A stretch of DNA of 50,487 bases from IMG/VR virus record IMGVR_UViG_3300021585_000002, positions 1 through 50,487 of that record; one strand, 5' to 3'. The position numbers were made by a program, and so were the translations under genes. Positions within the stretch are counted from its first letter, which is position 1. Each line of letters starts with the position of its first letter. The notes beneath the pieces are model-generated. The model saw only the letters and a program-made list of their open reading frames with translations. It was not told the origin of the DNA and did not search any database. The stretch is from a virus. Below are positions 10,176 to 40,412 of the stretch, piece by piece.

Positions 10176-10771
10176 ATGAGCTTCTCGACTTTCTCTGGCC
10201 CGGTACGTGCGGGCACCCAGCGTTACGCTCCCGGTGAAAACACCGGCCTTATCACGCTGTCTCGCACGGCTTATGTCAACGTCTCTGGCGTGGCGCTGAC
10301 CACTGGCGCTGCTGCACAGACGCTGTTTACGCTGCCTGCTGGCTCCAAGATTCTGAACTTCGTACCTGAAGTTCTGGTGACCGTCTGACCACTGGCGCTG
10401 CTGCACAGACGCTGTTTACGCTGCCTGCTGGCTCCAAGATTCTGAACTTCGTACCTGAAGTTCTGGTGACCGTTGCTGGTAACTCTGTGTCCCAGGTGGG
10501 CGTGACCATTGGCAAGGCTGGTTCTGCGGATGCGTTTGCTGCTTCGTTTAATACCGGCACGGCTGTGGCTCGTGTAGCTCAGGCTACCGTTGACACCGCA
10601 ATCTCTGGCAAGGTCGCTGCGCTGGACAACATTGGCACGGTAGATGTGCCTGTGACCGCCACGTTTACGGCTACGACGGGTAACCCGACTTCTGGGCAGA
10701 TCGCAATCACGGTTGTGTACCAGCAGCGTGCTGAAAACGGCGCACAAGTTCCTACCGCGTTCCAGAACTGA
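10176..10771 (+). pseudogene. Minor virion protein gene split by a tandem duplication
   Basis: Two reading frames here are halves of one gene. The first (10176-10388, 70 residues) starts after a good GAGGAAT site with MSFSTFSGPVRAGTQRYAPG and ends VLVTV-stop. The second (open from about GTG 10466 to 10771) continues VTVAGNSVSQVG in another frame and ends VPTAFQN. The break is an exact 89-base tandem duplication (10296-10473). Removing one copy leaves 507 bases, a clean frame of 168 residues. The joined protein is beta-rich and resembles a small head or tail surface protein. It may be a mutation, a reversible switch or an assembly artefact; the sequence alone cannot tell. Confidence 0.8.
10296..10473. 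repeat. Exact 89-base tandem duplication
   Basis: Copy one is 10296-10384 and copy two 10385-10473, with no mismatch. The bases flanking the copies differ (g versus t before, c versus t after), so 89 is the full repeat length. It is not a multiple of three and breaks the gene that contains it. Confidence 0.95.
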
Positions 10772-15445: not shown

Positions 15446-16999
15446 GTGGCCGCTGCTTTTCAAAGTAATGCGTTTCAGAACAACGCATTCCAGGCAGATG
15501 CCGGTGGCGCAAACATTGATTTTGATGCCGCAGCAGGTCTGTTCACGTACAGTGGACAGAACGCAACTCTTGCTGCCGCCAGAAACCTAAACGCCGAAGC
15601 TGGCTCTTTTACTTACACTGGTCAGGCTGCCACACTCCAGGCAGCCAGATCGGTCAATGCTGAAGCAGGCTCGTTCTCGTACACGGGTCAGAACGCAACG
15701 CTTCAGGCAGCAAAATCCATCAATGCTGAAGCTGGCGCGTTCTCATACGCAGGCCAAGCTGCAACGCTCACAGCAACCCGCAGCATCAATGCAGAAGCGG
15801 GTTCTTTTGCATACACCGGGCAAGCCGCAACTCTACAAGCGGCACGCAATGTAAACGCTGAAGCGGGAACATTTGCATACACCGGCCAAGATGCTACGCT
15901 TACGGCGGCACGTAGTGTTAACGCTGAATCTGGTGCGTTTACATACACCGGTCAAGACGCCAGCCTTACAGCAACGCGGAGCCTTAACGCCGAAGCGGGT
16001 TCGTTTGCGTATACAGGCCAAGACGCAAATTTCACGGCCACACGCAGCCTCAATGCTGAAGTTGGCACCTTTGCCTACACAGGCCAAGACGCCGCCTTCA
16101 TCTATGTACAAGCCAAGGGACTTGATGCCCAGGCTGGGACATTTACATACACGGGCCAAGACGCCACATTGGCGCAGACCCGCAGCCTGAACGCTGAAGC
16201 AGGAACATTTAGCTACACAGGTCAGAACGCCACGCTTTCAGCGGGCCGTGTTGTAAACGCTGAGTCCGGAGCGTTCACATACACCGGCCAAGATGCAGCG
16301 TTTCTGCTCGGGCTAGTTATCAACGCGGAAGCTGGCTCCTTTGCCTACACGGGCCAGGACGCAAGTCTTGTAGCAAACCGTAGTGTCGATGCACAAGCCG
16401 GGACGTTCACCTACACCGGTCAAGATGCAACGCTACAGGCCGCCAAGAACCTCAACGCAGAGGCTGGCAGTTTTGCGTACACAGGTCAGGACGCCACGCT
16501 GCAGACTGATCGGGTCGTTAATGCGGAAGCTGGAGCGTTTACATATACAGGCCAGGATGCGTCGCTCATAGCATCGCGCAGCCTTAACGCCGAAGCCGGT
16601 ATTTTTGTTTACACCGGTCAAGACGCCGTTTTTAACGTCTCTCGGGTTGTCGATGCACAGCCTGGATCGTTTGACTATCTAGGCCAGCCTGCCACGTTCT
16701 CGCGCACGAACCAGATCAACGCCGAAGCAGGCGCGTTTGGTGAAGCCAATCCATATGTGGAACCAGGGTACGTTGACCCGTACTATTCCACCAACCTGAC
16801 AGCGGCGCTTGGCTATGGCAGGATGTTCAACGCTGAGGCCGGTGCCTTTGCGTATCTGGGTCAAGATGCAACTTTTATCAAAGCCTTCTTATTCCCTCCA
16901 GAAGAGGACGTAAAAGCAGGTGTTGTCTATGGCCCAGGCGGTATCTACACGGGCACTTACGCACCTGCAGGCAGAGCCATCTTTATATTTGACGACTAA
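15446..16999 (+). CDS. Virion protein built of about twenty 22-residue repeats
   Basis: The 517-residue protein starts with GTG after AGGAG. A short N-terminus with the repeated NAFQ unit (FQSNAFQNNAFQ) is followed from about residue 26 by roughly 20 copies of a 22-residue unit, consensus LNAEAGSFAYTGQDATLTAT then RS. The last copies are diverged and interrupted by an insert (VEPGYVDPYY). The C-terminal 35 residues (EDVKAGVVYGPGGIYTGTYA onward) differ and resemble C-terminal caps in phage proteins. The repeat has an aromatic/Gly/Gln core and would form a long beta structure, perhaps a solenoid fibre. The phage role is not shown; position suggests a tail fibre or surface protein. Confidence 0.65.
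   Translation: MAAAFQSNAFQNNAFQADAGGANIDFDAAAGLFTYSGQNATLAAARNLNAEAGSFTYTGQAATLQAARSVNAEAGSFSYTGQNATLQAAKSINAEAGAFSYAGQAATLTATRSINAEAGSFAYTGQAATLQAARNVNAEAGTFAYTGQDATLTAARSVNAESGAFTYTGQDASLTATRSLNAEAGSFAYTGQDANFTATRSLNAEVGTFAYTGQDAAFIYVQAKGLDAQAGTFTYTGQDATLAQTRSLNAEAGTFSYTGQNATLSAGRVVNAESGAFTYTGQDAAFLLGLVINAEAGSFAYTGQDASLVANRSVDAQAGTFTYTGQDATLQAAKNLNAEAGSFAYTGQDATLQTDRVVNAEAGAFTYTGQDASLIASRSLNAEAGIFVYTGQDAVFNVSRVVDAQPGSFDYLGQPATFSRTNQINAEAGAFGEANPYVEPGYVDPYYSTNLTAALGYGRMFNAEAGAFAYLGQDATFIKAFLFPPEEDVKAGVVYGPGGIYTGTYAPAGRAIFIFDD
15521..16889. repeat. About twenty 66-base coding repeats
   Basis: The DNA behind the 22-residue units. Amino acids are conserved but third codon positions differ widely between copies (for example GGCCAAGAT, GGTCAAGAC and GGTCAGGAC for Gly-Gln-Asp), so the units are old or under selection against recombination. 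Confidence 0.8.
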
Positions 17000-20973: not shown

Positions 20974-21168
20974 ATGCTGCCGACCAAGAAGCTCGCCCCC
21001 GCTAAGCCGGGGCAACCTCAAGAGATCGAAACCCTCAAGGACGAGATCTGCATGGTGGTGGGCAACATCGCTATGGGCAAGCCTTCTGCTGCCAAAACCT
21101 CGGGCATCAAGATCCGTGGGACTGGCGCTGCCACCAAGGGCACGATGGCTAGGGGTCCGATGGCATGA
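20974..21168 (+). CDS. Small hypothetical protein
   Basis: A 64-residue basic protein, MLPTKKLAPAKPGQPQEIE, then a short helix and a Gly/Ala/Lys-rich end. It begins 4 bases after the previous stop and overlaps the next start by 4 (ATGA). No motif recognised. It belongs to the same run of small genes. Confidence 0.55.
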   Translation: MLPTKKLAPAKPGQPQEIETLKDEICMVVGNIAMGKPSAAKTSGIKIRGTGAATKGTMARGPMA

Positions 21169-21815
21169 ACTACACCGAGTTGAAGACCGCTGTTGAGGAC
21201 TACACCGAGAACACGTTCTCGGCAACCGACTTCGCCACGATGACGGAGTTGGCTGAGCAGCGCATCTACAACTCGGTGCAGCTTCCTGCACTTCGCAAGA
21301 ACGTCACAGGCACTCTGACGGCAGGCAATCAGTACCTCGCCGCCCCAGTGGACTTCCTGTCCGTCTTCAGCCTCGCGGTCATTGATGCTTTGGGTAACTA
21401 CGAATACTTGTTGAACAAGGATGTCAACTTTATTCGCTCATCGTTTCCAAACCCGACAACGACCGGGACGCCCAAGTACTACGCTTTGTTTGGTCCTGAC
21501 TCGTCGAACATCACGGACCTGACGCTCATTCTCGGCCCCACGCCGAACGCAGGACTGACCGCAGAACTGCACTACTTCTACTACCCGCAGAGCATCGTGA
21601 CTGCCGGTACGTCTTGGTTGGGCGACAACTTTGACTCAGTGCTGTTCAATGCCGTCATGGTCGAAGCAGCGCGGTTCATGAAGCAAGAGGTGGATCTCGT
21701 GGCTGAGATGGACAAGCAGTACGTCCAGTCCCTGACGCTGCTGAAGAACCTGGGCGACGGCAAGAACCGTCAAGACGCATACCGCAGCGGCCAACTCAGA
21801 ACGCAGGTGCTTTGA
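21165..21815 (+). CDS. Head-to-tail connector or adaptor protein
   Basis: The 216-residue protein opens MNYTELKTAVEDYTENTF with helices (ELAEQRIYNSVQLPALRK near 22-45), then beta-rich sequence (GNQYLAAPVDFLSVFSLAVI, about 50-70, and LTLILGPTP), and ends in a helix (VEAARFMKQEVDLVAEMDKQ). This arrangement resembles the adaptor protein at 19633 and the second adaptor ring of P22-like tails. It overlaps the previous gene by 4 bases. It marks the end of the connector block before tail proteins. Confidence 0.7.
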   Translation: MNYTELKTAVEDYTENTFSATDFATMTELAEQRIYNSVQLPALRKNVTGTLTAGNQYLAAPVDFLSVFSLAVIDALGNYEYLLNKDVNFIRSSFPNPTTTGTPKYYALFGPDSSNITDLTLILGPTPNAGLTAELHYFYYPQSIVTAGTSWLGDNFDSVLFNAVMVEAARFMKQEVDLVAEMDKQYVQSLTLLKNLGDGKNRQDAYRSGQLRTQVL

Positions 21816-21816
21816 G

Positions 21817-22233
21817 ATGGCACTCTTCCAAACACTGTGTTCATCGTTTAAGCAGGAATCATGGCAGGGCGTCCATGACTTGGACACCGACACGCTTAAG
21901 CTGGCCCTGTACACCAGCCTTGCTGATCTTGGTGCTGCAACGACTGTTTACACCACAACGCAAGAAGTTGTGGGCACAGGGTACACGGCGGGCGGCATAG
22001 TGCTGACAAATGTCCAAGTGCTGCTCAGTGGCACGACGGCATATGCAACCTTTGATAACCCAACATGGGCTGGGGTAAGTTTTGTCACCCGTGGTGGTTT
22101 GATTTACAACTTCTCCAAGTCTGATAAAGCAATAGCTGTCTTAGACTTCGGTGCTGACAAAACCGCTGGGCCCAACTTCACGGTCCAGCTTCCGGTCGCA
22201 ACCGCGACAACCGCGCTCCTTCGATTTAGCTAA
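21817..22233 (+). CDS. Virion beta protein, paralogue of the gene at 12003
   Basis: The 138-residue protein begins MALFQTLCSSFKQESWQGV and contains DTLKLALYTS, then GTGYTAGGIVL, in the same order as the gene at 12003-12437. The two share length and motif order. Its ATG comes one base after the previous stop; coupling is likely. It is predicted beta-rich. Function unknown; probably a minor tail component. Confidence 0.65.
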   Translation: MALFQTLCSSFKQESWQGVHDLDTDTLKLALYTSLADLGAATTVYTTTQEVVGTGYTAGGIVLTNVQVLLSGTTAYATFDNPTWAGVSFVTRGGLIYNFSKSDKAIAVLDFGADKTAGPNFTVQLPVATATTALLRFS

Positions 22234-22242
22234 GGACTGATC

Positions 22243-22824
22243 ATGGCAAGTGAAAACGCAAAATCTCAAGACCTCGTTGCTTCTGCTTTGGCTTCCGTCA
22301 AAGAGTCCATCGATGGCGCAAAGGCTGGCGGTGTATACCGCATGGAATGCATTGGCCCGGACGGTAACGTCAAGTGGACCGCCGAGTGCCCGAACCTTGT
22401 GGTGAACGTCGGCTTGCAAGACATGAACGCCAAGTACTTCAGTGGCAGTACTTATACCGCTACGTGGTTCATTGGCCTGTATGGCGCTGGTGCATCCAAC
22501 ACACCCGCAGCGGGTGACACCGCCGCTTCGCACGCTGGCTGGACTGAGGTGGTGCCTTACAGCAATGCCACTCGCCCTGCGGCAACTTTTGGAACCGCGA
22601 CTACCGCTGACCCGTCTGTGATCAGCAACTCTGGCTCCCCTGCCGCGTTCTCCATCAACGCCACGGCGACGGTGGGTGGGGCTTTCCTAATTAGCAATAG
22701 CACCAAGAGCGGAACTACTGGCATCCTGTTTTCGGCGTCTGACTTCCAGTCGCCTGGGGATCGTTCAGTTGCCTCTGGTGACACGCTAAACGTCACCTAC
22801 ACGTTCAACCTTGATGCTGTTTAA
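22243..22824 (+). CDS. Tail-region structural protein
   Basis: The 193-residue protein has an AAGGACTGATC leader. It contains YRMECIGPDGNVKWTAECPN (about 29-48), then VVNVGLQDMNAKYFSG and a repeated-strand Ser/Thr-rich C-terminal part. I recognise this N-terminal pattern from phage tail-region genes but cannot name the family. Cys32 and Cys46 may pair or bind metal. Probably a virion protein. Confidence 0.6.
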   Translation: MASENAKSQDLVASALASVKESIDGAKAGGVYRMECIGPDGNVKWTAECPNLVVNVGLQDMNAKYFSGSTYTATWFIGLYGAGASNTPAAGDTAASHAGWTEVVPYSNATRPAATFGTATTADPSVISNSGSPAAFSINATATVGGAFLISNSTKSGTTGILFSASDFQSPGDRSVASGDTLNVTYTFNLDAV

Positions 22825-22837
22825 GGAGTAGTAAGTC

Positions 22838-23017
22838 ATGGCGTACAGAAAAGGTGACACCCTCAAGGTCAAAGCGGTTATCCCAACTGGGCCTGTGCTG
22901 GCCTTGCGCATGAGCGAGGATGGCGACATCTCCTACTTGCTGGAGTGGGTGGATCTAGAGGGTGAAACCCAACAGCGTTGGTTTCGCGAAGAAGAGTTGG
23001 AGCCTGCGGGGGCTTAA
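22838..23017 (+). CDS. 59-residue SH3-like phage protein
   Basis: A short gene preceded by AAGGAGTAG. It reads MAYRKGDTLKVKAVIPTGPV, then LALRMSEDGDISYLLEWVDL and ends in a strand and turn, EELEPAGA. The strand and turn pattern looks like a small SH3-type beta-barrel seen in many phages. The function is unknown. It sits right before the repeat giant and may be a chaperone or a minor tail part. Confidence 0.6.
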   Translation: MAYRKGDTLKVKAVIPTGPVLALRMSEDGDISYLLEWVDLEGETQQRWFREEELEPAGA

Positions 23018-23020
23018 TGA

Positions 23021-26000
23021 ATGTCGAATGGCGGATGGGGCTCAGGCTCCTGGGGTCAAGTTGCATGGGGGATGGGGCTCTATGATGGAGCCTCGTCTGA
23101 ATCCGCAACTGCCGCTGATTCCGCTTCTGCAAGATTAGTTTCCCCCCGCGCCGTCTCTGAGACGGCCACAGCCGCTGATGCAACGTCAGCGGTTTTTGCA
23201 GTACCCGCGTCTGTTTCTGAGTCTGCCACCGCAGCAGACTCGATTTCGGCTACACCAAAATACGCGAGAACTGAATCTGAGACAGCAAACGCATCTGATG
23301 CTGTCTCTGTAGCCGCCAGCACGTTCAGACCGTCTATTGCTGAGACGGCAAGGGCATCGGATACAGCGTCTTCAGCCTTAGTTGTTAGGCCGTCAGTCGC
23401 AGAAACGGCCACTGCAGCGGACACGGTCTCCGCCACCGAGACACTACGCCCAACAGTCTCTGAGACTGCAGCGGCGGCAGATGCAACGGTAGTCGCGTCC
23501 AGCACCTTCAGGCCCTCTGTATCAGAAACGGCCAGAGCCAGTGACTCCGTATCAGTCGCAGGCAGCACGTTTAGACCGACTCTGTCAGAGACAGCAACGG
23601 CGGCTGACTCTGTAACTGCCAGAGAAATACTAGTCCCAACGGTTGCCGAGACAAGCACCGCTTCGGACTCCGTATCGGTCGCCGCCAGCACATTCAGGCC
23701 AACGGTTTCTGAGTCCGCTACTGCAGCAGACGCTACTTCATCGCGCACCGCCTTCGGTTCGTCGGTCTCAGAGACCACCACAGCGTCGGATGCTTCAACT
23801 GCAAGGCAGATATTCCAAGCCTACATAGGAACGTCTGGCTGGGGTTCTGGAGCTTGGGGCGGAGATCCTTGGGGGGGTTTGAACGACACAGCCGCGTCTA
23901 TCTCTGACTCGGTTGTTGCTTCGCCTGTTGCCAACGGCGCTGTCTCTGAGACTGCCAGGGCGTCAGACTCGGTATCCGTCGCAGCCAGCACGTTTAATCC
24001 AGCCATCTCTGAGACGGCATCAGCGTCTGACACGGTTGTAGCGAGGCAAACCTTTGTTACGTCAGTTAGCGAGACAGCCAACGCTTCTGACAGCATTAGT
24101 GCGGCACAGACAGCCAGAAGCACCGTATCAGAAACGGCAAACGCATCTGACTCCGTAGTTGCTAGGCAGGGCTTTACCTCCGCAGTTTCAGAAACTGCCA
24201 GAGCATCTGACAGTGTTAGCACAACGCAGACGTTTGTCTCGTCTGTATCAGAGACGGCAAACGCTTCTGATTCCGTAGTTGCGCGTCAGACATTTGCAAC
24301 GGCAGTTTCGGAAACGTCCACAGCACTAGATGCAGTAACTGCTAGACAAACATTTGCATCGTCTGAAAGTGAGACGGCAACTGCATTTGACAGTGTTAGT
24401 GCTGCGCAAACATTTAGTAACTCTGCATCTGAAACTGCCACAGCCTCTGACGCCACTTCATCGGCGCAAGGATTTGGTGTCTCTATATCTGAGACTGCCC
24501 GCGCATCAGATACAAGCTCCGCTGCTCAAACATTTGCCACAGCAATTTCTGAGACCGCTACAGCACTAGATGCTGTGGCTGCGCGGCAGGTATTTGCAAC
24601 GGCAGTTTCGGAAACGGCCAATGCGTCAGACGCAGTAGCGGCAGGGCAGTCATTCAGTACAAGTGCATCCGAGACTGCGCGTGCATCCGATGCGGTATCT
24701 GTAGCCGCCAGCACGTTTAACGCCTATATCGGCACTTCTGGTTGGGGTTCTGGTGCCTGGGGTGGAGACCCTTGGGGCGGCTTAAATGATACGGCAGCAA
24801 GTATCTCAGACGCCGTTTCTGCATCGCCTGCATTCTTTGGTTCTGTATCGGAGACGGTTAGAGCATCTGACGCATTTGCTGTTGCTGCAAGCACATTTAA
24901 CACCGCAGTATCTGAAACAGCTAGGGCGTCTGATTCTGTTGCGGTTAGCCAGACGTTTGTTACCGCCGTTAGTGAGACCGCAAACGTATCTGACAGTACT
25001 GCAGCTTCTCAAGCATTTGTTGCCGCTACATCTGAAACAGCCAGAGCATCTGACGCAGTTGCCGCATCCCAAAGTTTTGGGGCTTCTGTATCTGAAACAG
25101 CCAGAACCTCTGATGCAGTCAGTTCTGCGCAAGCGTTTAACACAGCAGTATCAGAGACAGCCAGGGCGTCCGACTCTGTATCAACCATACAGACGTTTGC
25201 TACAGCAGTATCAGAGACAGCTTCTGCATCGGACTCTGTCTCCGCAGGGCAAGTATTCGCTGCTAATACTTCAGAGACGGCTCGCGCATCTGACTCCGTA
25301 TCTGTAGCGTCTAGCGTCTTCAACGCCTACATCGGAACTTCTGGCTGGGGCTCGGGGGCTTGGGGTGAAGACCCGTGGGGCGGCTTAAACGACACCGCCG
25401 CAACTGCACTGGATGTAGTTTCTGCGTCCCCCGCATTCAATGCGTTTGCATCTGAAACGGCACAAGCCTCTGATGCTTTCGCGGTCGCTGCCAGCACGTT
25501 TAATGGTCTGGTTGCCGAAACTGCCACCGCAACAGACTCCGTAGCAGCCCGCCAAGTATTTGCAACGTCAGTAACAGAGACGGCCACTGCGGCGGATAGC
25601 GTTGTTGCCACCCAATCGTTCGTAGCGGCTGTATCTGAGACGGCAACTGCGGCAGACCAAACGCAGGCGTCTCAAGCGTTTACATCGGCTGTTTCTGAAA
25701 CGGCTAGGGCATCTGATACCGTTTCAGCGGCCCAGGCACCTACCTCAACAACTTCTGAAACCGCAACCGCATCTGACGCGGTTTCAACACAACAAGTCTT
25801 TGCCACAGCGGTCACAGAGAGTGCCACGGCTGCTGATAGCACATCAGCAGGGCAGCGTTTTGTAACCAACGTAGCTGAAACGGCCACAGCGGCTGACTCC
25901 GTATCTGTTGCCGCAAGCACGTTCAACGCATTTATTGGCACTCAAGGCTGGGGTTCCGGAGCCTGGGGTGAGGATCCTTGGGGCGGTTTAAACGACACTG

Positions 26001-26908
26001 CTGCGAGCGCTTCGGACGCGGTCTCTGCATCACCTGTGTTCTTCGGGGCTGTATCAGAGGCAGCACAAGCCTCTGATGCCTTCGCTGTCGCGGCCAGCAC
26101 GTTCAATCCAGCCGTAAACGAAGCTGCTGCCGTCTCTGACGCTGCGTCTGCACAGCAAATCTTCGCCACGGCAGTCTCTGAGAACGCACAGGCGTCTGAC
26201 GCTGTTGCATCAGGGCTTCTCTCATCGGCCAACATTTCGGAGACAGCAACAGCCAGCGATGTTGTTTCTGCTGGCAGCGTATTCAATGTAAGCGTCAGTG
26301 AAGGTGTAACTGCTGCCGACGCAGTCACGACCACGACCATCACGCCCGCCAGCGTGAGTGAGACTGCACGAGCCGCAGACTCCGTAGTTGCCAAGGTTGA
26401 CTGGCAAGCCAGCATGAGCGAAGCCGCTCAAGCGATGGAGTTGTTTGATGCTGGCAAGCTGTTCATTGCAACACTGCTGGAGCAGTGTGGGGCGTTTGAT
26501 TCAATCTTTGCCCAGAATCGCTGGCAGACCATTGACGACACGCAGAACCCTAACTGGCAAGTTGTCCCAGACGGACAGACGCCGGGGTGGCAGCACATCC
26601 AAGACTCGCAGACGCCTGGGTGGCAGCACATCAACGATACCCAGAGCCCTGCATGGCAATGCGCCACCACCGCTCAAACCCCAACCTGGGTCTTAGTAAC
26701 TGACACACAAGCGCCTGGGTGGCAGTGTGTCACCACCGCGCCATCCCAGCCGTGGCAGAATGTAACAACTGCACAAGCGCCGGTATGGCAACCCACGCCC
26801 CCCGCCCCTCTTGACGGCTGGCAGAATGTAGACGATGATCAGTCTGCCGGGTGGCAAGATGTGGAGAGCCCTGAGTCAGCCGAGTGGGCTGATATTGATA
26901 CGGGCTAA
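23021..26908 (+). CDS. 1295-residue repeat protein with Trp-rich modules
   Basis: The protein starts NGGWGSGSWGQVAWG and then holds about 50 copies of a roughly 20-residue unit with the core SETA-(T/R/N)-A-SD-(S/A)-V-(S/A)-A. Four spacers of the type YIGTSGWGSGAWGGDPWGG (near 23822, 24725, 25328, 25931) divide the array. Their spacing is exactly 301, 201 and 201 codons, so there is a higher-order repeat. From 26522 a different repeat of about 12 residues (core DTQ-P-WQ-V-D) with Trp is present ten times. The Ala/Ser/Thr core with few hydrophobics suggests a long flexible or beta-rich fibre. The ATG follows the previous stop by 3 bases. Function is unknown; fibre or surface protein likely. Confidence 0.65.
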   Translation: MSNGGWGSGSWGQVAWGMGLYDGASSESATAADSASARLVSPRAVSETATAADATSAVFAVPASVSESATAADSISATPKYARTESETANASDAVSVAASTFRPSIAETARASDTASSALVVRPSVAETATAADTVSATETLRPTVSETAAAADATVVASSTFRPSVSETARASDSVSVAGSTFRPTLSETATAADSVTAREILVPTVAETSTASDSVSVAASTFRPTVSESATAADATSSRTAFGSSVSETTTASDASTARQIFQAYIGTSGWGSGAWGGDPWGGLNDTAASISDSVVASPVANGAVSETARASDSVSVAASTFNPAISETASASDTVVARQTFVTSVSETANASDSISAAQTARSTVSETANASDSVVARQGFTSAVSETARASDSVSTTQTFVSSVSETANASDSVVARQTFATAVSETSTALDAVTARQTFASSESETATAFDSVSAAQTFSNSASETATASDATSSAQGFGVSISETARASDTSSAAQTFATAISETATALDAVAARQVFATAVSETANASDAVAAGQSFSTSASETARASDAVSVAASTFNAYIGTSGWGSGAWGGDPWGGLNDTAASISDAVSASPAFFGSVSETVRASDAFAVAASTFNTAVSETARASDSVAVSQTFVTAVSETANVSDSTAASQAFVAATSETARASDAVAASQSFGASVSETARTSDAVSSAQAFNTAVSETARASDSVSTIQTFATAVSETASASDSVSAGQVFAANTSETARASDSVSVASSVFNAYIGTSGWGSGAWGEDPWGGLNDTAATALDVVSASPAFNAFASETAQASDAFAVAASTFNGLVAETATATDSVAARQVFATSVTETATAADSVVATQSFVAAVSETATAADQTQASQAFTSAVSETARASDTVSAAQAPTSTTSETATASDAVSTQQVFATAVTESATAADSTSAGQRFVTNVAETATAADSVSVAASTFNAFIGTQGWGSGAWGEDPWGGLNDTAASASDAVSASPVFFGAVSEAAQASDAFAVAASTFNPAVNEAAAVSDAASAQQIFATAVSENAQASDAVASGLLSSANISETATASDVVSAGSVFNVSVSEGVTAADAVTTTTITPASVSETARAADSVVAKVDWQASMSEAAQAMELFDAGKLFIATLLEQCGAFDSIFAQNRWQTIDDTQNPNWQVVPDGQTPGWQHIQDSQTPGWQHINDTQSPAWQCATTAQTPTWVLVTDTQAPGWQCVTTAPSQPWQNVTTAQAPVWQPTPPAPLDGWQNVDDDQSAGWQDVESPESAEWADIDTG
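23093..26445. repeat. About fifty 60-base coding repeats in a higher-order array
   Basis: The DNA of the SETA/SD array. The protein unit is conserved, but codons vary (GAGACGGCC, GAAACAGCC, GAGACTGCC and others for Glu-Thr-Ala). Trp-containing spacers give periods of 903, 603 and 603 bases. Confidence 0.85.
26522..26905. repeat. Ten short Trp-containing coding repeats
   Basis: The C-terminal array of the same gene, with a unit near 36-39 bases, each with one Trp (for example QTPGWQHIQD and QSPAWQCATT). It could form a solenoid cap or ligand-binding end. Confidence 0.75.
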
Positions 26909-26932: not shown

Positions 26933-28456
26933 ATGCCATCAACCTTTACGTCCAGTCTGCGACTGACCCTCCCTGCAACCGGCGAAAACGCCGGAACCTG
27001 GGGCAATTTGGTCAACACGGGCATCACGACCCTGATCGATACGTCGATTGCGGGGACCGCCAGCATCACTGTTGGCGGAACTGATTACACACTCACCAAC
27101 AACAACGGCACGACAGACGAAGCTCGGGCCATGGTTATCAACGCCACCGGCACTCCGGGGGCTGGAAGAAACGTCATCTGCCCTGCTGCGAGCAAGATGT
27201 ATGTCTTCCGCAATAACACCACGGGCGGCTTTGCGATGACGCTCAAGACCTCAGCGGGGTCCGGCATAGCCGTCCCTGCGGGGCAAAGTCGCCTGTTGTA
27301 CTGTGATGGCACCAACGTAGTTGAAACGCTCAATTCGCTCGGTTCTTTGACGCTGGGCTCTGCACTTGGCGCAGCATCAGGCGGTACGGGCCTGACGGCA
27401 TCTGGAGCCAACGGGAACGTCCTGACCAGCAACGGTACAACGTGGACTTCTGCTGCGCTGCCTGCTGGTGGCCTGACCTACATTTTCACAACTACCGCTG
27501 TCACGGCAACTGACAAGCAGGGTGTTCTGACCAGCACTGCAGGTGGTGCGTTTACGGTCACTTTGCCCGCCACACCAGCCACTGGCGCTCAGGTTGTGAT
27601 TGCTGATGCAGGTGCGTCATGGGGCACCAACAATCTAACGGTTGGGCGAAACGGATCGACCATCGGCGGTTTGGCTGAAAACCTCGTGTGTGACATCACC
27701 GGGGTCAGTGTCCAGTTTGTTTACGACGGTACGACATGGGAGGTGTACGCCCAGGTCGGTGGTCAGGGCGGTAACGTTGCAACCCAGCCGGGTAACAACG
27801 CCTTCACTGGTGCAAACACCTTCTACAACGCCACGGGCCAGACCTTCGGCACGGCGACATCAACCCAAGACGGCATCATCCTCGCAGGCCGTGCGGGCGG
27901 ATCGTCTTCTTTCCGTGCAACCCTGCAGCCCACAACTCTGACGGCAAGCAGAACTTTGACGCTGCCTGACGCAACCAGCACGGTTGCGGTCTTGGGCCTT
28001 GCTCAAACATTCACGGACACCCAGACCTTCAGTGGCTCCAGCAGTGTGCTGGGAATGGTGCTCAACGATGCAGCAGAAGTCGCCACCATCAGCGCCACAG
28101 CAGCGACCGGCACGATCAACTACGACATCACCACGCAGTCGGTGCTGTACTACACCACCAATGCCTCTGCCAACTTTACGGTCAACCTGAGAGCCTCTTC
28201 AGGAACTACGCTGAACACGGCGTTGGCTACAGGCCAATCGGTCACGGTGGTGTTTTTGGTTACAAACGGCGGAACGGCGTACTACAACAACGTAGTGCAG
28301 GTTGACGGAACTACGTCAGGAGTTACTACCAGATGGCAGGGCGGTACAGCGCCTACAGCGGGTAATGCGTCGAGCGTGGACATCTACTCTTACACGGTAG
28401 TAAAAACTGCTGCGTCAACGTACAGCGTTTTTGCTGCCCAGACGAGGTTTGCATAA
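26933..28456 (+). CDS. Long tail fibre protein
   Basis: The 507-residue protein starts SSLRLTLPATGENAGTWGNL, an N-terminal pattern common in phage tail fibres. Most of the length is Thr/Ser/Gly/Asn-rich beta sequence. A motif GGTG-x(8)-NVLTSNGTTWTS (near 27380-27460) is also found in the Gly-rich adhesin at 29821, a sign of shared modules. The C-terminus ends YSVFAAQTRFA. Trimeric beta structure is likely. The GAGGT leader is good, and its stop overlaps the next gene by one base. Confidence 0.75.
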   Translation: MPSTFTSSLRLTLPATGENAGTWGNLVNTGITTLIDTSIAGTASITVGGTDYTLTNNNGTTDEARAMVINATGTPGAGRNVICPAASKMYVFRNNTTGGFAMTLKTSAGSGIAVPAGQSRLLYCDGTNVVETLNSLGSLTLGSALGAASGGTGLTASGANGNVLTSNGTTWTSAALPAGGLTYIFTTTAVTATDKQGVLTSTAGGAFTVTLPATPATGAQVVIADAGASWGTNNLTVGRNGSTIGGLAENLVCDITGVSVQFVYDGTTWEVYAQVGGQGGNVATQPGNNAFTGANTFYNATGQTFGTATSTQDGIILAGRAGGSSSFRATLQPTTLTASRTLTLPDATSTVAVLGLAQTFTDTQTFSGSSSVLGMVLNDAAEVATISATAATGTINYDITTQSVLYYTTNASANFTVNLRASSGTTLNTALATGQSVTVVFLVTNGGTAYYNNVVQVDGTTSGVTTRWQGGTAPTAGNASSVDIYSYTVVKTAASTYSVFAAQTRFA

Positions 28457-32995: not shown

Positions 32996-34879
32996 ATGCC
33001 ACTCAAGAAATTTGTAGCCAAGTCTGGTGTAAACAGAGAAAACACCCGCTACTTCAATGAGGGCGGCTGGTACTCCTGTGACAAGATCCGCTTCCGTCAA
33101 GGAAGTCCAGAAAAGATTGGCGGCTGGCAGCAGGTCAGCAATGAGCAGTTCCTGGGTGTGTGCCGCTCCTTGTGGGCGTGGTCGGCTTTGTCAGGCGTGG
33201 CTTATGTAGGGCTTGGCACAAACCTGAAGTACTACATCGCGCTGTCTGGTGGGGGCACGTACAACGATGTCACGCCCATCCGAAGCACAGCAACACTGAA
33301 CAATCCGTTTACAGGCAACGGCACCACCACCGTCACTGTGACTGATGTTGCTCACGGCTGCATCACGGGTGATTTCGTAACTTTCAGTGGCGCGACAGGC
33401 ACTTACGACACCATTTTTAATGCAGAGTTTCAAGTCACGGTTCTGACCGCCGACACATACACCATCACAACCGGCTCCAACATTGCTGTTGGCTCTTATG
33501 GTGGCGCTACTGTCCTTGCAAGTTACCAAGTAAGTGTTGGTGATGTTCTGCAAACAGCAGTGACTGGCTGGGGTGCCGGAGGATGGGGCCTTGGGACTTG
33601 GGGCAACGGCCTTGCAAGCACATCGTCTATCCGTGTTTGGAACAATGACAACTTTGGCGAAGACTTGATCTTTGGGCCTAAGGATGGTCCGCTGTATTAC
33701 TGGGACCAGACAGCAGGTTTAAGCACTCGTGGCGTGGCGCTGACATCTTTGGCTGGTGCCTCTGATGTGCCTACCGTGCAGCACTTGGTTGTGGTGTCCG
33801 ACACATCGCGTTTTGTTTTGGCGCTGGGCTGTAATGACTACGGCTCTGCCACGCAAGACACAATGCTGATCAGATGGTCGGATCAGGAGAGCGCGGTCAA
33901 TTGGACCCCTTCTGCAACCAATCAAGCGGGCAGCTTGCGCCTGTCTCACGGCTCTGTCATTGAGGCTGTAGCCCAGGTCCGCCAGGAGTTCTTGGTTTGG
34001 ACCGACACAGCCTTGTACTCACTGCAGTACCTGGGGCCTCCTATTGTCTGGGGCTCACAGATCCTATCCGACAGCGTTTCCATCCTTAGTGACCGCGCAT
34101 GGGCGACGGCTGCTGGTGTGACGTACTGGATGGGTAACGGTAAGTTTTATATGTACGACGGTCGCGTCCAGAATCTGGTCTGCGATCTGCGTCAGTTTGT
34201 GTTTAACAATTTCAACCTAAACCAATCTCAGCAGGTTTTTGCATCCACAAACGAGCAGTTCAATGAAGTTTGGTGGTTTTACTGCTCCAAGAATAGCACC
34301 GCGATTGACAGTTACGTGATCTACAACTACGTCGAGAAGGCGTGGTATTACGGAACGATGGGCAGGACCGCTTGGATTGACACCAGCGTGTCCAATGATG
34401 TGCCAATGGCTACCGACTACAACCGGCGCTTGATTTATCACGAGACCGGCGTTGATGACAACGCCACGACGACCACGCTGCCGATTGCAGCGTTCATTAC
34501 TTCGTCCGAGTTTGATATTGAAGACGGGCACAACTTTGGGTTTGTCTGGCGGGTGCTGCCTGATGTGAACTTCACCGGTTCCATATCTGAAAGCCCGACG
34601 ATGAACCTGACGCTGTTACCTTTGCAGAACTCAGGCTCAGGGTATACCCGAGGTGTGGTGCCTGTTGCTTCCGTGACTTCAGATATGTCGGTGGCAGGTG
34701 AAAACGCTTACCCTGTAGTGCGTAGCGCCACAGTGCCGATTGACCAGTTCACGGGGCAGGTAAACATTCGAGTGCGTGGCAGGCAGATTTCTCTCAAGGC
34801 CGCATCAGACCAACTTGGTGTGCAGTGGCAGCTTGGTGCATGTCGTTTAGACATCAGGCCTGACGGACGTAAATCGTGA
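32996..34879 (+). CDS. Large tail structural protein
   Basis: The 627-residue protein starts MPLKKFVAKSGVNRENTRYF, then FNEGGWYSCDKIRFRQGSPE and GGWQ, an N-terminal pattern I know from podovirus-type virion genes annotated as tail or stabilisation proteins. The middle has Trp/Gly sequence TGWGAGGWGLGTWGNG (near 190-205), similar to the spacers in the protein at 23021. The rest is beta-rich, with repeated W-D and W-G turns suggestive of a propeller-like structure. It starts 2 bases after the endolysin stop. A role like P22 gp10 (tail stabilisation hub) is plausible but not proven. Confidence 0.65.
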   Translation: MPLKKFVAKSGVNRENTRYFNEGGWYSCDKIRFRQGSPEKIGGWQQVSNEQFLGVCRSLWAWSALSGVAYVGLGTNLKYYIALSGGGTYNDVTPIRSTATLNNPFTGNGTTTVTVTDVAHGCITGDFVTFSGATGTYDTIFNAEFQVTVLTADTYTITTGSNIAVGSYGGATVLASYQVSVGDVLQTAVTGWGAGGWGLGTWGNGLASTSSIRVWNNDNFGEDLIFGPKDGPLYYWDQTAGLSTRGVALTSLAGASDVPTVQHLVVVSDTSRFVLALGCNDYGSATQDTMLIRWSDQESAVNWTPSATNQAGSLRLSHGSVIEAVAQVRQEFLVWTDTALYSLQYLGPPIVWGSQILSDSVSILSDRAWATAAGVTYWMGNGKFYMYDGRVQNLVCDLRQFVFNNFNLNQSQQVFASTNEQFNEVWWFYCSKNSTAIDSYVIYNYVEKAWYYGTMGRTAWIDTSVSNDVPMATDYNRRLIYHETGVDDNATTTTLPIAAFITSSEFDIEDGHNFGFVWRVLPDVNFTGSISESPTMNLTLLPLQNSGSGYTRGVVPVASVTSDMSVAGENAYPVVRSATVPIDQFTGQVNIRVRGRQISLKAASDQLGVQWQLGACRLDIRPDGRKS

Positions 34880-36257: not shown

Positions 36258-39200
36258 ATGGCTCTTCCGCTGTATCAAACGCTATCTTCTCAAGAACAGT
36301 TTGAGCGTCTTGGCGCAGCCATGCCGACCGGGTGGGAAACCACCACAGACCCACTTGCAAGAATCAACTTACTCAACCAACTTGGTGTAAGTGGGGATCA
36401 GCTAAGAGATGTCCTTGGGTACTCTCAAGGCGATGTTGATTGGATGCAAAGCAAGGGTCTGGGAGTTCCTGCTCCCACCCCTGCGCCAACTCCAGCCCCA
36501 ATACAACAGAACGCTTATCAAACCCTGGCACAAGAGCCTGGATTTGACACCGATGCATATACATACGAAGACCTCGTATCTGATTACGTTGCCCCGACGC
36601 CGACTCTGGCTCCAACACCCGCGCTCAATCAATACGGATATTCCGAAGAAGATTGGAATGCTTTTAGCCCTGAAGCGCGTAGTTTTATCGAGCGACCAGA
36701 AACCGCAAATCTTGGTCGTGGCACGGACACCAGGGATTTCCTTGGTGATGATATTCAAATCAATAAGGAAATAGGACAAACAGGCGATAGTTGGTCTGGT
36801 AAAACTACAACTTACCAAGCATATGATGCCTACGGTAACCCAACGCAAACATTTGATGTTTCTGAGAGTGGCCTAAAAGAAGGCTTGGCTATAGCGGCTA
36901 CTATGGCCGCTTCAATGGCTACGCTAAACCCGGCATTTACCGCTGGGATTGGTGGAACTATTGCATCCACACTAGGTATCCAGGGGTTATCTGCAGCGGC
37001 AACATCGGCTCTTGGTAGTGCTGCTGTTAATGCAGCAGTTACGGCTGCAAAAGGTGGCAGTTTTGAAGATGTTTTGCAAGCAGCAGCAGCAAGCGGGCTT
37101 GGAAGCGTAGCGGCAGAAAAAGTTGCTGCGTTTGCAAACTCGGCTGGCTCTCAAGTTGCAAGCCAACTAAACAGTTCTGCACTTGGCCAAGCCGTAACAA
37201 GCGGCATCACTGCGGGTGCGCGGGCACTCCCATCGGCGATTGCAACCGGTGACTTTGGCAACGTCCTGACCAGCGCACTGACTGGCGGAGCCACGGCAGG
37301 CATTACCACGGGTATTTCCAACCTGACTGGGTTTACACCGTCTGAGATCAATGCTGCTGTAAACATTGCACAGGGTGCTGCGTCTGGTGACTATGCCAAG
37401 ATGCTGGCGGGGGCTGGTTCGTTTACGGATAGCCCAATCCCTGGCCTTGCTTCCAAAGCCTTGACGCTGAAAGAAGCGGTTGAGTCTGGTAATCCAACAA
37501 GGATCATGTCAGCCATGCAGGGCTTTGGCTCTGCGATGGATGCGTACAACAACCAGCAGGCACGAGACAACAGCAAGACAGACACAGGCGACGAAACCGC
37601 CCGCCTTCAGGCCCGTTATGGCACTGCAGATGACGCAGTCATCAAGCAGATTGAGGCCATGTCTCCCAAGACAACTGGCCCTGCCGGCACAACGGCAGAT
37701 GTTGAGCAGGCTCTGTACGAGGATGTGCTGAGACAAGCTCCGTCTGTTACAGAGTCCACCATCACGCCTGAGGAGTTGGCTCGGATTGTCAGCGGGGACA
37801 CAGCGCCTACGGCCAAAACAACTACCGAAACAACCGCTCCGGTCCAAGGCCCATACGACAAGTATGTTGACTTCGGTGAGGCGTTCCGCGCAGCCAGAAG
37901 CGTGCTTGGTGCTGGCAAATCGTTTACATGGACCGATCCGATCACCGGCTCAACAAAGACTTACACAACGGACTACGCTCCTGCCGCACCAAAGGATGCA
38001 GGTGCCGGAAGAGGTATCGCACCAGGGGTGACTGCAGCAAATGCAGCACAGCTTTCTGCAATTCCGTTGCGAACAGAAACTGCGCGAACTGTTTCAACGC
38101 CTAAGTTGACCGACACAGATTCCGGCATTGACTATTCTGCCGCTGCTACTGATATGCAGGGAACCGCGCCAAGTGCAGACGCAACATATGCAACGCTAAG
38201 TCAAAACGCACAGAGCCTTGCCAATGCCGCTAAGGGCACTGCTTTCCAAACGCCGACAGCGCTAGTATTAGATGCCGTGTCCCAATTGGGGACATCGTTT
38301 TCGTCTGCCTTTGGCGGCGTAGGTAAAGACAATACAACTCTGCAAGAGTTTAAGAAAATACAAGATATTGCAACAAGCATAACGCCTGATGCTGTTTTAA
38401 AAGATCTTGCAAGCCTTAACAAGAGTATTCAAAGTGCTGATGGCGTTCTGCAAACATTAGGTGCAGTTGGCGCAGGTATTTATAAGCAACCTTTAGCAAT
38501 AGGTTGGCAAATTGGCTCTGAAATTGTTCAAGAAATACCATTGCTTGGTATAGGCAAGGCAGTTCAAGTTGGTGCTAAAGCTCTTGAATTTAGCAAAAGA
38601 ATTGCCGATACCTTGGGTGTCACTACTTCGGTGGCGTCCAATATGCTGGAAAACGGCGGGTCCGCAAGAAACGAGACTTATGACGCTACGCAAGCACTAT
38701 TAAAAGACAGCGTAAAGTCTGGACAAATTACACAAGTAGAAGCTGACACGATTGCGCAAAAGCAAGCAGACAATGCTTTTGTTAAATCAATGGCAGTGAC
38801 TGGTGCAATATCGTTTATACCCGGTGGCACCGCCCTGGAAAAACGCATTATTGTTGGCGGCGCAGTAAATGACGCCAAGAGTGCCATTACAACCGGCTTG
38901 AAGGTTGCGGCAAAAGAAACAGTTCCAGAAGGCGTGGAAGAGGGTGCCACAGACTATATAACTCAAGGAGAGTCATTAAGGTCTATTGGCAAGGGATACG
39001 CAGATGTAAGCCCAAGTCAAGTTGCTGCTGCAACAGGTCTAGGCGCAATCATTGGCGCTGGGTCTTCTGGCAGTATTGCCACGGGCGCAGGTGTTGTTGA
39101 CACTTTGAGTGGGTCAACAGGTGCAGCCGCCACGGAGCCTGGAGTAGCGCAAACCGTCTCATCTGGCGATGTAACAAAACCCGCAGTCAAAACAGAGCCA

Positions 39201-40412
39201 ACATTTGACCCCAACACTGTGGTTGCCACAGATCCAGATACGGGCGATACGTTGACTCTTGGTGATTTAACCGGCTCAACTATTAGTTCTGCTGGCACCA
39301 CCACAAAGATTGACCCAACTTTAGAGCCACTAAGTGACACTGAGCTTGACAGCGACCAGATCATCAATGACTACATCAATGAAGTCCTTGGTGGCAATGC
39401 GCCTGCAACAAGCTCAACGGAGAATGTTGTTTTAGGCACTGATCCAGATACTGGGGCAGAAGTCACGATGGGTGACTTGGGCTTGACGCCAAAAACCACA
39501 ACTGAAACTGCGCCTGATTTATCTACGCCTATTGCAACAGATCAAAACACAGGTGAAGTGATTACGCTTGGTGATGTAACGGCAACAACCGCTCCAGATA
39601 CAACACCCAAGACTGAGGCCACATCAGATACCGCACCCAAGCCGGATACGCGGCCCGACACACAGCCTGATGTCCAGCCGGACACACAACCAGAACCGGA
39701 CACAACACCTGATGTTGCCCCGGATACTGCTCCTGATACGGCACCAGATACCGCACCAGACACGGCTCCCGACACAGTCCCGGATGTTGCGCCAGACACG
39801 GCTCCTGATACTACGCCTGACGTAACTCCTGATACTGCTCCAGACACCACTCCGGACACCACTCCGGACACCACGCCGGACACCACGCCGGACACTGCTC
39901 CGGATACCGCGCCTGATGTGGCTCCGGACACCACGCCAGATACCACGCCAGATACCACGCCAGATACCACTCCTGATACCACGCCTGATGTAGCGCCGGA
40001 TACGACACCCGACACTGTGACGGACACCACTCCAGATACAAAAACAGAAATACCTCCTGAAGTTAAGCCGCGTGTGAGCGTTGAACCCCCAACGCCTGAA
40101 CCTACCCCCGCTCCTACGCCTGCACCAACTCCGCCGCCTCCTGCGCCGACACCAGCACCTCCGGCTCCAACTCCTGCGCCGACACCTGCTCCTACGCCTA
40201 AGCCAGCGACTACGTCTAAACCCAAAGCCCCTAGTCCTGCGCCTAAGCCTCAGGCACAATCACCGCAGATGACTCCAGAGCTTGCAGCGTTTATTCAGGA
40301 ACTGATGCGGACAGAAGAAGCGGATCTGGAAGCAATGACGATGGTGCGCAAAGCAGAGCGCGAAGAAAAGCGCAAAGGCGCTCGTGAAAAACTGAAGTCT
40401 AGAAAGGCTTGA
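36258..40412 (+). CDS. 1384-residue virion protein with PDT repeats
   Basis: The N-terminus (about 1-75) has a globular helical pattern (LARINLLNQLGVSGDQLRDV) followed by Ala/Pro-Thr linkers. Residues about 210-420 are Ala/Gly-rich and hydrophobic, resembling membrane-interacting or ejection-channel parts. A unit TDPDTG...TLGDL occurs three times near 990-1110. Then a xPDT tetrapeptide array (about 1128-1263) and a Pro/Ala/Thr run (PTPAPTPAP) lead to a basic helical C-terminus (ADLEAMTMVRKAEREEKRKG). Such composition fits a large injected protein or internal core protein. The next gene starts 3 bases after its stop. Confidence 0.6.
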   Translation: MALPLYQTLSSQEQFERLGAAMPTGWETTTDPLARINLLNQLGVSGDQLRDVLGYSQGDVDWMQSKGLGVPAPTPAPTPAPIQQNAYQTLAQEPGFDTDAYTYEDLVSDYVAPTPTLAPTPALNQYGYSEEDWNAFSPEARSFIERPETANLGRGTDTRDFLGDDIQINKEIGQTGDSWSGKTTTYQAYDAYGNPTQTFDVSESGLKEGLAIAATMAASMATLNPAFTAGIGGTIASTLGIQGLSAAATSALGSAAVNAAVTAAKGGSFEDVLQAAAASGLGSVAAEKVAAFANSAGSQVASQLNSSALGQAVTSGITAGARALPSAIATGDFGNVLTSALTGGATAGITTGISNLTGFTPSEINAAVNIAQGAASGDYAKMLAGAGSFTDSPIPGLASKALTLKEAVESGNPTRIMSAMQGFGSAMDAYNNQQARDNSKTDTGDETARLQARYGTADDAVIKQIEAMSPKTTGPAGTTADVEQALYEDVLRQAPSVTESTITPEELARIVSGDTAPTAKTTTETTAPVQGPYDKYVDFGEAFRAARSVLGAGKSFTWTDPITGSTKTYTTDYAPAAPKDAGAGRGIAPGVTAANAAQLSAIPLRTETARTVSTPKLTDTDSGIDYSAAATDMQGTAPSADATYATLSQNAQSLANAAKGTAFQTPTALVLDAVSQLGTSFSSAFGGVGKDNTTLQEFKKIQDIATSITPDAVLKDLASLNKSIQSADGVLQTLGAVGAGIYKQPLAIGWQIGSEIVQEIPLLGIGKAVQVGAKALEFSKRIADTLGVTTSVASNMLENGGSARNETYDATQALLKDSVKSGQITQVEADTIAQKQADNAFVKSMAVTGAISFIPGGTALEKRIIVGGAVNDAKSAITTGLKVAAKETVPEGVEEGATDYITQGESLRSIGKGYADVSPSQVAAATGLGAIIGAGSSGSIATGAGVVDTLSGSTGAAATEPGVAQTVSSGDVTKPAVKTEPTFDPNTVVATDPDTGDTLTLGDLTGSTISSAGTTTKIDPTLEPLSDTELDSDQIINDYINEVLGGNAPATSSTENVVLGTDPDTGAEVTMGDLGLTPKTTTETAPDLSTPIATDQNTGEVITLGDVTATTAPDTTPKTEATSDTAPKPDTRPDTQPDVQPDTQPEPDTTPDVAPDTAPDTAPDTAPDTAPDTVPDVAPDTAPDTTPDVTPDTAPDTTPDTTPDTTPDTTPDTAPDTAPDVAPDTTPDTTPDTTPDTTPDTTPDVAPDTTPDTVTDTTPDTKTEIPPEVKPRVSVEPPTPEPTPAPTPAPTPPPPAPTPAPPAPTPAPTPAPTPKPATTSKPKAPSPAPKPQAQSPQMTPELAAFIQELMRTEEADLEAMTMVRKAEREEKRKGAREKLKSRKA
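39640..40045. repeat. xPDT coding repeat array
   Basis: Tandem four-codon units, mostly Thr/Ala/Val-Pro-Asp-Thr, with varying codons. The array would form an extended, flexible acidic linker. Some local runs (for example 39840-39900 and 39940-39990) are nearly identical in DNA, so slippage is possible here. Confidence 0.8.

What the first reader, a model, noticed from the sequence alone, without database searches (positions are those of the whole stretch)
23021..26908. Hierarchical repeat giant: 20-residue units inside 201-codon modules
About 50 SETA/SD units are grouped by Trp/Gly spacers with spacing of 301, 201 and 201 codons, followed by a separate Trp array. The exact module lengths point to expansion by whole modules, so length may vary between strains. 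The unit is unlike any fibre repeat I know.
Basis: seen in the sequence. Interest (0 to 1): 0.7.

Follow-up and report, generated by a model that had tools for sequence, protein, structure and literature searches.

The report
Phage tail stalk with swappable repeats
An uncultured phage carries a giant member of an undescribed family of tail-region proteins built like a stalk from dozens of copies of one 20-residue unit between two end pieces, and relatives carry the same end piece on a different, 22-residue stalk.

Summary
ORF 23021-26908 (1295 aa) holds 51 twenty-residue S-E-T-A-x-A-x-D units, Trp/Gly linkers spaced 268, 301, 201 and 201 codons, and a C-terminal array of 12 Trp exactly 11 apart. 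It is not an assembly artefact: other IMG/VR contigs match it base for base, and its longest exact internal DNA repeat is 25 nt. The "201-codon module" is a Trp/Gly linker plus nine units; the rule is 20n+1 (relatives: 121, 181). Relatives differ by exactly one 201-residue module plus five units, so length varies, but most units are old (codons near-saturated; dN/dS 0.23). The gene is the largest found of a broad family lying just after the tail adaptor in short-tailed SU10-like phages, before the nozzle gene. Complete members have 3-51 units and three alternative N-terminal ends. A second family in the same locus carries a homologous C-terminal Trp array on an unrelated 22-residue repeat. I think it is a tail fibre or stalk whose repeats are a length-adjustable, exchangeable shaft. 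Virion presence, fold and receptor role are inferred; AlphaFold gave only low-confidence beta strands. I found no described family that contains it.

The parts
23021..26908 (+). repeat-stalk protein, 1295 aa
   Evidence: ORF; 51 units; dN/dS 0.23 against L004 over 994 codons
23033..23071 (+). N-terminal Trp/Gly cap GWGSGSWGQVAWG (aa 5-17)
   Evidence: same cap type in 39 of 76 slot proteins
23096..26416 (+). array of 51 units of 20-21 residues (aa 26-1132), interrupted by four linkers
23828..23884 (+). Trp/Gly linker 2 (aa 270-288)
24293..24592 (+). 100 residues (5 units) absent from L004/L005
24716..25318 (+). 201-residue module absent from L004/L005
24731..24787 (+). Trp/Gly linker 3 (aa 571-589)
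25334..25390 (+). Trp/Gly linker 4 (aa 772-790)
25937..25993 (+). Trp/Gly linker 5 (aa 973-991)
26522..26905 (+). C-terminal Trp array: 12 Trp exactly 11 residues apart (aa 1168-1295)
   Evidence: homologous to the C-terminus of the 22-residue-repeat family
21165..21815 (+). SU10-type adaptor gene, upstream neighbour
   Evidence: Pfam SU10_adaptor E 3.2e-20
21817..22233 (+). phrog_644 gene, upstream neighbour
   Evidence: E 2.4e-18
22243..22824 (+). phrog_8123 gene; homologue of KPP25 ORF007, a chain of a solved structure
22838..23017 (+). small conserved gene (59 aa) directly before the stalk gene
   Evidence: homologue found in 62 of 76 repeat loci
26933..28456 (+). next gene, fibre-like (phrog_31104 and phrog_5906; tailspike-like stretch)
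32996..34879 (+). nozzle gene further along the tail block
   Evidence: PDB 8zkk_O 'nozzle gp16' E 1.2e-5

Best explanation
It is a structural protein of a short-tailed (SU10-like) phage, most likely a tail fibre or stalk attached near the adaptor. Two functional ends, a short Trp/Gly cap at the N-terminus and a Trp array at the C-terminus, are held apart by a regular beta-strand shaft. Each 20-residue unit contributes two short strands; unit number sets shaft length, and Trp/Gly linkers every 20n+1 residues act as joints. Shown here: the anatomy, purifying selection, position between adaptor and nozzle genes, unit and module gain or loss between relatives, alternative N-terminal ends, and the same C-terminal array on a second kind of shaft. 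Inferred: presence in the virion, fibre shape, oligomeric state, joints, and host contact at one end.
For: Position: adaptor, phrog_644, phrog_8123, small gene, stalk gene, fibre-like gene, and later nozzle; 68 of 69 repeat loci with enough upstream DNA have the adaptor and 68 of 69 phrog_644 upstream. In SU10 the adaptor (gp11) carries the long tail fibres gp12/gp13 and the nozzle is gp17 (PMC9509320, passages). Slot: 76 of 123 assessable distinct loci have the repeat protein there, plus four degenerate ones seen on inspection; most other slots hold a different MALVLADRV-type gene. The neighbour phrog_8123 is a homologue of a solved chain named 'Structural protein'. Complete members: 3-51 units; unit number rises with Trp repeats (Spearman 0.75, not corrected for ancestry). 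Trp-array homology: a profile from 77 20-residue-unit proteins finds 42 of 56 22-residue-repeat proteins at E<=1e-3, and the reverse finds 77 of 77; scores beat 20 Trp-preserving shuffles in 52/56 and 77/77. 58 of 72 loci of the second family have phrog_644 and 54 of 72 the adaptor upstream. Both AlphaFold runs give a strand about every 10 residues. dN/dS 0.23.
Against: No virion proteomics or structure of any member. AlphaFold confidence is low (mean pLDDT 47.8 and 49.9) and no structure is predicted for the Trp array. The conserved end is the C-terminus and the exchanged end the N-terminus, the reverse of the textbook fibre plan (recalled). Profile A2 finds no fibre in the PDB. Some phages with another gene in the slot carry a repeat protein about 7 kb downstream (L131, L165), so the two are not strict alternatives. 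N-cap similarity between the two families is weak (best E 0.0087 and 0.0023, best shuffles 0.2 and 1).
Confidence: 0.62

Rival explanations
1. Reversed fibre: the conserved C-terminal Trp array docks on the tail (or on the phrog_8123 protein) and the exchanged N-terminal end (Trp/Gly cap, FG cap or large RYW domain) points outward to the host.
For: C-terminus is the shared part of two stalk families; N-terminal ends are the exchanged part: WG 39, FG 27, RYW 8, other 2 of 76. The RYW-type domain also occurs in Methylophilaceae phage P19250A just after its host-specificity protein J and a tail-fibre gene.
Against: Short caps of about 20 residues are small for receptor binding; SU10 long fibres dock by their N-termini (PMC9509320 passages).
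Confidence: 0.2
2. Environmental adhesin or whisker on the virion (binding polysaccharide, particles or cell debris) rather than a receptor-binding fibre.
For: Very acidic and Ala/Ser/Thr-rich (net charge -97); unit number varies widely (3-51).
Against: Tight linkage to the adaptor in 68 of 69 loci.
Confidence: 0.1
3. Internal or tape-measure-like protein: the 11-residue Trp spacing resembles tape-measure repeats.
For: tblastn of the Trp array meets mostly tape-measure proteins in 113 phage records, at 20-24% identity and E 2e-5 to 0.5 in the rows shown.
Against: Short-tailed gene set with adaptor and nozzle; no helix predicted; no tape-measure repeat family listed by Pfam at E<=10.
Confidence: 0.05
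4. Not a protein that matters: spurious ORF or assembly artefact.
For: Repeats can be mis-assembled; L003 and L007 break inside the array.
Against: Identical full copies in two other contigs, 25-nt longest exact repeat, dN/dS 0.23.
Confidence: 0.01

Closest known systems
22-residue 'VTGVQGTGQVGTVTV' repeat proteins (Phage DSL-LC04 hypothetical protein WJZ48131.1 and IMG/VR relatives)
   Same: same locus after adaptor and phrog_644, homologous C-terminal Trp array, similar-looking short caps
   Different: different stalk unit: period 22 or 44 in all 63 distinct sequences, no 20-residue unit in any
SU10 long tail fibre (gp12/gp13)
   Same: gene numbers lie between adaptor (gp11) and nozzle (gp17) (passages of PMC9509320)
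   Different: no sequence match found; SU10 fibre has a coiled-coil part, here beta strands are predicted, weakly
crAssphage BACON-domain tandem arrays
   Same: repeat arrays in tail-associated proteins, arising by duplication (PMC6949934, abstract and passages)
   Different: Ig-like domains, not 20-residue units; no Pfam hit to it here
phrog_12240
   Same: window protein matches at E 2.4e-19 over the units
   Different: function unknown; only 6 of 37 aligned members match
Tape-measure protein Trp repeats
   Same: Trp every 11 residues
   Different: no Pfam tape-measure repeat listed, short tail, no predicted helix

Membership tests
SU10-type long tail fibre | gene between adaptor and nozzle genes | tested here: met
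   adaptor upstream in 68 of 69 relatives
SU10-type long tail fibre | sequence homology to a solved fibre | tested here: not met
   profile A2 against the PDB: 11 matches at E<=10, none a phage fibre
SU10-type long tail fibre | trimeric appendage in the virion | not testable with these tools
   needs virions
Adenovirus-type triple beta-spiral shaft | 15-residue repeat (recalled) and Pfam match | tested here: not met
   period is 20; no such Pfam family
Tape-measure Trp repeat | Pfam match to a tape-measure repeat | tested here: not met
   not listed at E<=10; the model is very short, so a miss is weak evidence
Tape-measure Trp repeat | Trp every 11 residues | tested here: met
phrog_12240 | profile match | tested here: inconclusive
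   window E 2.4e-19, 6 of 37 family members
Trp-array tail-locus proteins (defined here) | C-terminal 11-residue Trp array homologous across both stalk types | tested here: met

The most novel reading that the evidence does not exclude
A previously undescribed phage appendage plan: one conserved C-terminal Trp-array end on which at least two unrelated beta-repeat shafts (20- and 22-residue) and three kinds of N-terminal end are exchanged, with shaft length set in steps of one unit (3 to 51 seen) and jointed by Trp/Gly linkers every 20n+1 residues: a natural adjustable ruler, possibly mounted by its C-terminus.
Probability: 0.3. Interest if true: 0.75.

Novelty: new variant of a known kind. Interest (0 to 1): 0.55.

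Why it matters
If right, hundreds of uncultured phages share a simple modular fibre whose length changes in fixed steps while both ends stay the same. That would let one ask directly how fibre length, apart from receptor specificity, shapes infection, and would give a role to many 'hypothetical proteins' next to the tail adaptor. The 20-residue unit, with nearly invariant Glu and Asp, may also be a new repeat fold useful for building filaments of set length.

Tried and rejected
Pfam on the window protein: nothing significant. tblastn of the whole protein against named phages: no match; low-complexity filtering probably hides the units, and a short relative (L055) found DSL-LC04 instead. Relatives in bacterial and archaeal genomes: none confirmed by tblastn with A1 or with L055. 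PDB profile search: the top rows are clostridial toxin A chains at E 0.0026 and 0.0053, a weak match; named and not pursued. No Foldseek search was run because both models have mean pLDDT at or below 50. Literature: searches listed no paper that, by title and abstract start, describes this repeat in the held open-access library; search 109 (HTVC023P, HTVC027P) led to two papers whose passages do not mention it. Named hosts: DC31 and P19250A share only the RYW-type domain with one family member. DC31's ORF runs off the record start; I fetched the other end of that record but did not analyse or join it. HTVC023P gp68, in a cultured pelagiphage, has a 22-residue period and a Trp end but scores only 11.6 bits with the Trp profile, so I call it a likely but weak member.

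Full report
The observation. ORF 23021-26908 encodes 1295 aa. A position-weight parse gives 51 units of 20-21 residues (consensus about S-E-T-A-x-A-S-D-S-V-S-A-x-Q-x-F-x-x-A-V); D8 is invariant (51/51), E2 is kept in 47/51. The same parse of 5 shuffles of each of 43 family proteins gives none. Trp/Gly linkers start at aa 6, 274, 575, 776 and 977 (spacing 268, 301, 201, 201). The protein ends with 12 Trp exactly 11 residues apart. The '201-codon module' is a Trp/Gly linker plus nine units.

Not an artefact. Two other IMG/VR contigs (L001, L002) carry the whole ORF with 0 mismatches and two part-copies (L003, L007) also have 0; they bear three metagenome numbers. The longest exact repeat in the ORF is 25 nt, so ordinary reads can place the units. 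Against the 994-aa relative L004, dN/dS over 994 codons is 0.23.

How the length changes. L004 and L005 lack exactly 201 residues (one module) and 100 residues (five units); L006 (1219 aa) has linker spacings 268, 201, 181, 121, 121. In the window clade every spacing after the first is 20n+1; in more distant members it is not (104, 299, 106). Codon choice between equivalent positions is near random for most unit and module pairs (for example 0.344 observed, 0.334 expected for modules 3 and 4), so most copies are old; the tails of modules 2 and 3 share more codons (0.524 against 0.337, 82 pairs), as does a short stretch inside module 2 at lag 100 (0.486 against 0.338, 37 pairs), two of six comparisons, which fits later duplication there.

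Neighbourhood. The window holds terminase, portal and major head protein, SU10-type adaptor, phrog_644, phrog_8123, a 59-aa gene, the stalk gene, a fibre-like gene, fibre assembly genes, endolysin and a nozzle homologous to a solved 'nozzle gp16'. The phrog_8123 protein is a homologue (E 7.6e-12) of KPP25 ORF007, which is chain U of entry 26la, named 'Structural protein'. In SU10, gp11 is the adaptor, gp12/gp13 the long fibres, gp16 the short fibre and gp17 the nozzle (PMC9509320, passages only). So the gene sits where SU10 keeps its fibre genes.

The family. phrog_8123 has several hundred IMG/VR relatives (393, 549 and at least 595 found with three queries; 80 kept each time). Of 183 loci examined, 137 have distinct neighbour-gene DNA; 14 had under 900 nt downstream. 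Of the 123 left, 76 have a protein with at least 3 units starting within 2.2 kb; 47 do not. Four of the 47 (L040, L047, L136, L194) on inspection do have a degenerate repeat protein with a Trp array in the slot. Most other slots open with a different, MALVLADRV-type gene. L131 and L165 have such a slot and also a repeat protein about 7 kb further on, so the two types are not strict alternatives. The 71 complete repeat proteins have 3-51 units (the window's is the largest; next 42), 66 of 71 have at least two 11-spaced Trp pairs, and the 76 have N-terminal ends of type WG 39, FG 27, RYW 8, other 2. Upstream, 68 of 69 assessable loci have the adaptor and 68 of 69 phrog_644; 62 of 76 have the 59-aa gene.

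A second stalk on the same end. A short relative (L055) matched Phage DSL-LC04, a complete lake-metagenome genome, where adaptor, a 95-aa gene and phrog_644 are followed by a 376-aa 'hypothetical protein' with Trp/Gly caps, a 22-residue VTGVQGTG repeat and a Trp array. It has 115 IMG/VR relatives (80 kept). In 63 distinct sequences the period is 22 or 44 and no 20-residue unit is found; all 57 complete ones have an 11-spaced Trp pair, and 39 of 57 an N-terminal cap by pattern. A profile of the Trp array from 77 20-residue-unit proteins finds 42 of 56 of them at E<=1e-3 (0 of 1120 shuffles); the reverse profile finds 77 of 77 (0 of 1155 shuffles). Keeping every Trp in place and shuffling the rest of the last 140 residues, real scores beat 20 own shuffles in 52/56 and 77/77. 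So the likeness is not Trp spacing alone. The N-caps look alike by eye but are not significant. Of 72 loci with at least 700 nt upstream, 58 have phrog_644 and 54 the adaptor within 3 kb.

Structure. AlphaFold2 on the window's last 366 residues (37 sequences) and on a complete 248-aa relative (22 sequences) gave mean pLDDT 47.8 and 49.9. Both put a strand of about 7 residues roughly every 10 residues, two per unit, and nothing firm for the Trp array. This is a hint only.

Mechanism. Most likely a tail appendage: a shaft of beta units between two ends, with unit number tuning length. Which end is distal is open. The C-terminus is the shared part and the N-terminus the exchanged part, which would suit a C-terminal mount; SU10 precedent suits an N-terminal mount. 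Relations to print: tail-associated tandem arrays are known (crAssphage BACON domains; abstract and passages) and host-recognition genes are variable in marine phages (PMC3909814, abstract). The DSL-LC04 genome paper (PMC10611076, passages) has no occurrence of 'tail fiber' or 'repeat' in its main text. No search listed a paper on this repeat.

Novelty. Repeat-built phage fibres are a known kind; the 20-residue unit, the 11-residue Trp end and the occurrence of two shaft types on a shared end are, as far as these searches show, new. I call it a new variant of a known kind.

Noticed in passing
window 22838-23017: Conserved 59-aa gene squeezed between the phrog_8123 gene and the stalk gene; no PHROG hit, no match in named phages, homologue in 62 of 76 repeat loci. 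Function unknown.
   Followed up: partly
window 10296-10473: Exact tandem duplication of 89 bp (not a multiple of 3) inside a reading frame just after the major head protein gene; the frame is broken there. Real mutation or assembly error; a DNA search of four related records found no match to compare.
   Followed up: partly
window 15446-16999: Another repeat protein, 517 aa, with 66-nt (22-residue) tandem repeats, before the adaptor; Pfam BppU_N above cut-off.
   Followed up: no
window 39708-40199: 1384-aa ORF (36258-40412) holds 12- and 24-nt tandem repeats near its 3' end; no PHROG or Pfam hit.
   Followed up: no
L104 9998-14119 (PQ492658.1, Limnohabitans phage DC31): A 1374-aa open frame starting with the RYW-type domain runs up to the record start and is not annotated; only short reverse-strand genes are listed there.
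   Followed up: partly
L275 5926-6573 and 6537-6938: Two consecutive open frames, one with an FG-type and one with a WG-type cap, both with 22-residue repeats and a Trp motif at the end.
   Followed up: no
L075, L096, L097, also L082, L154, L164: Extra genes that look like mobile endonucleases (recalled motif, not tested) lie next to the phrog_8123 gene.
   Followed up: no
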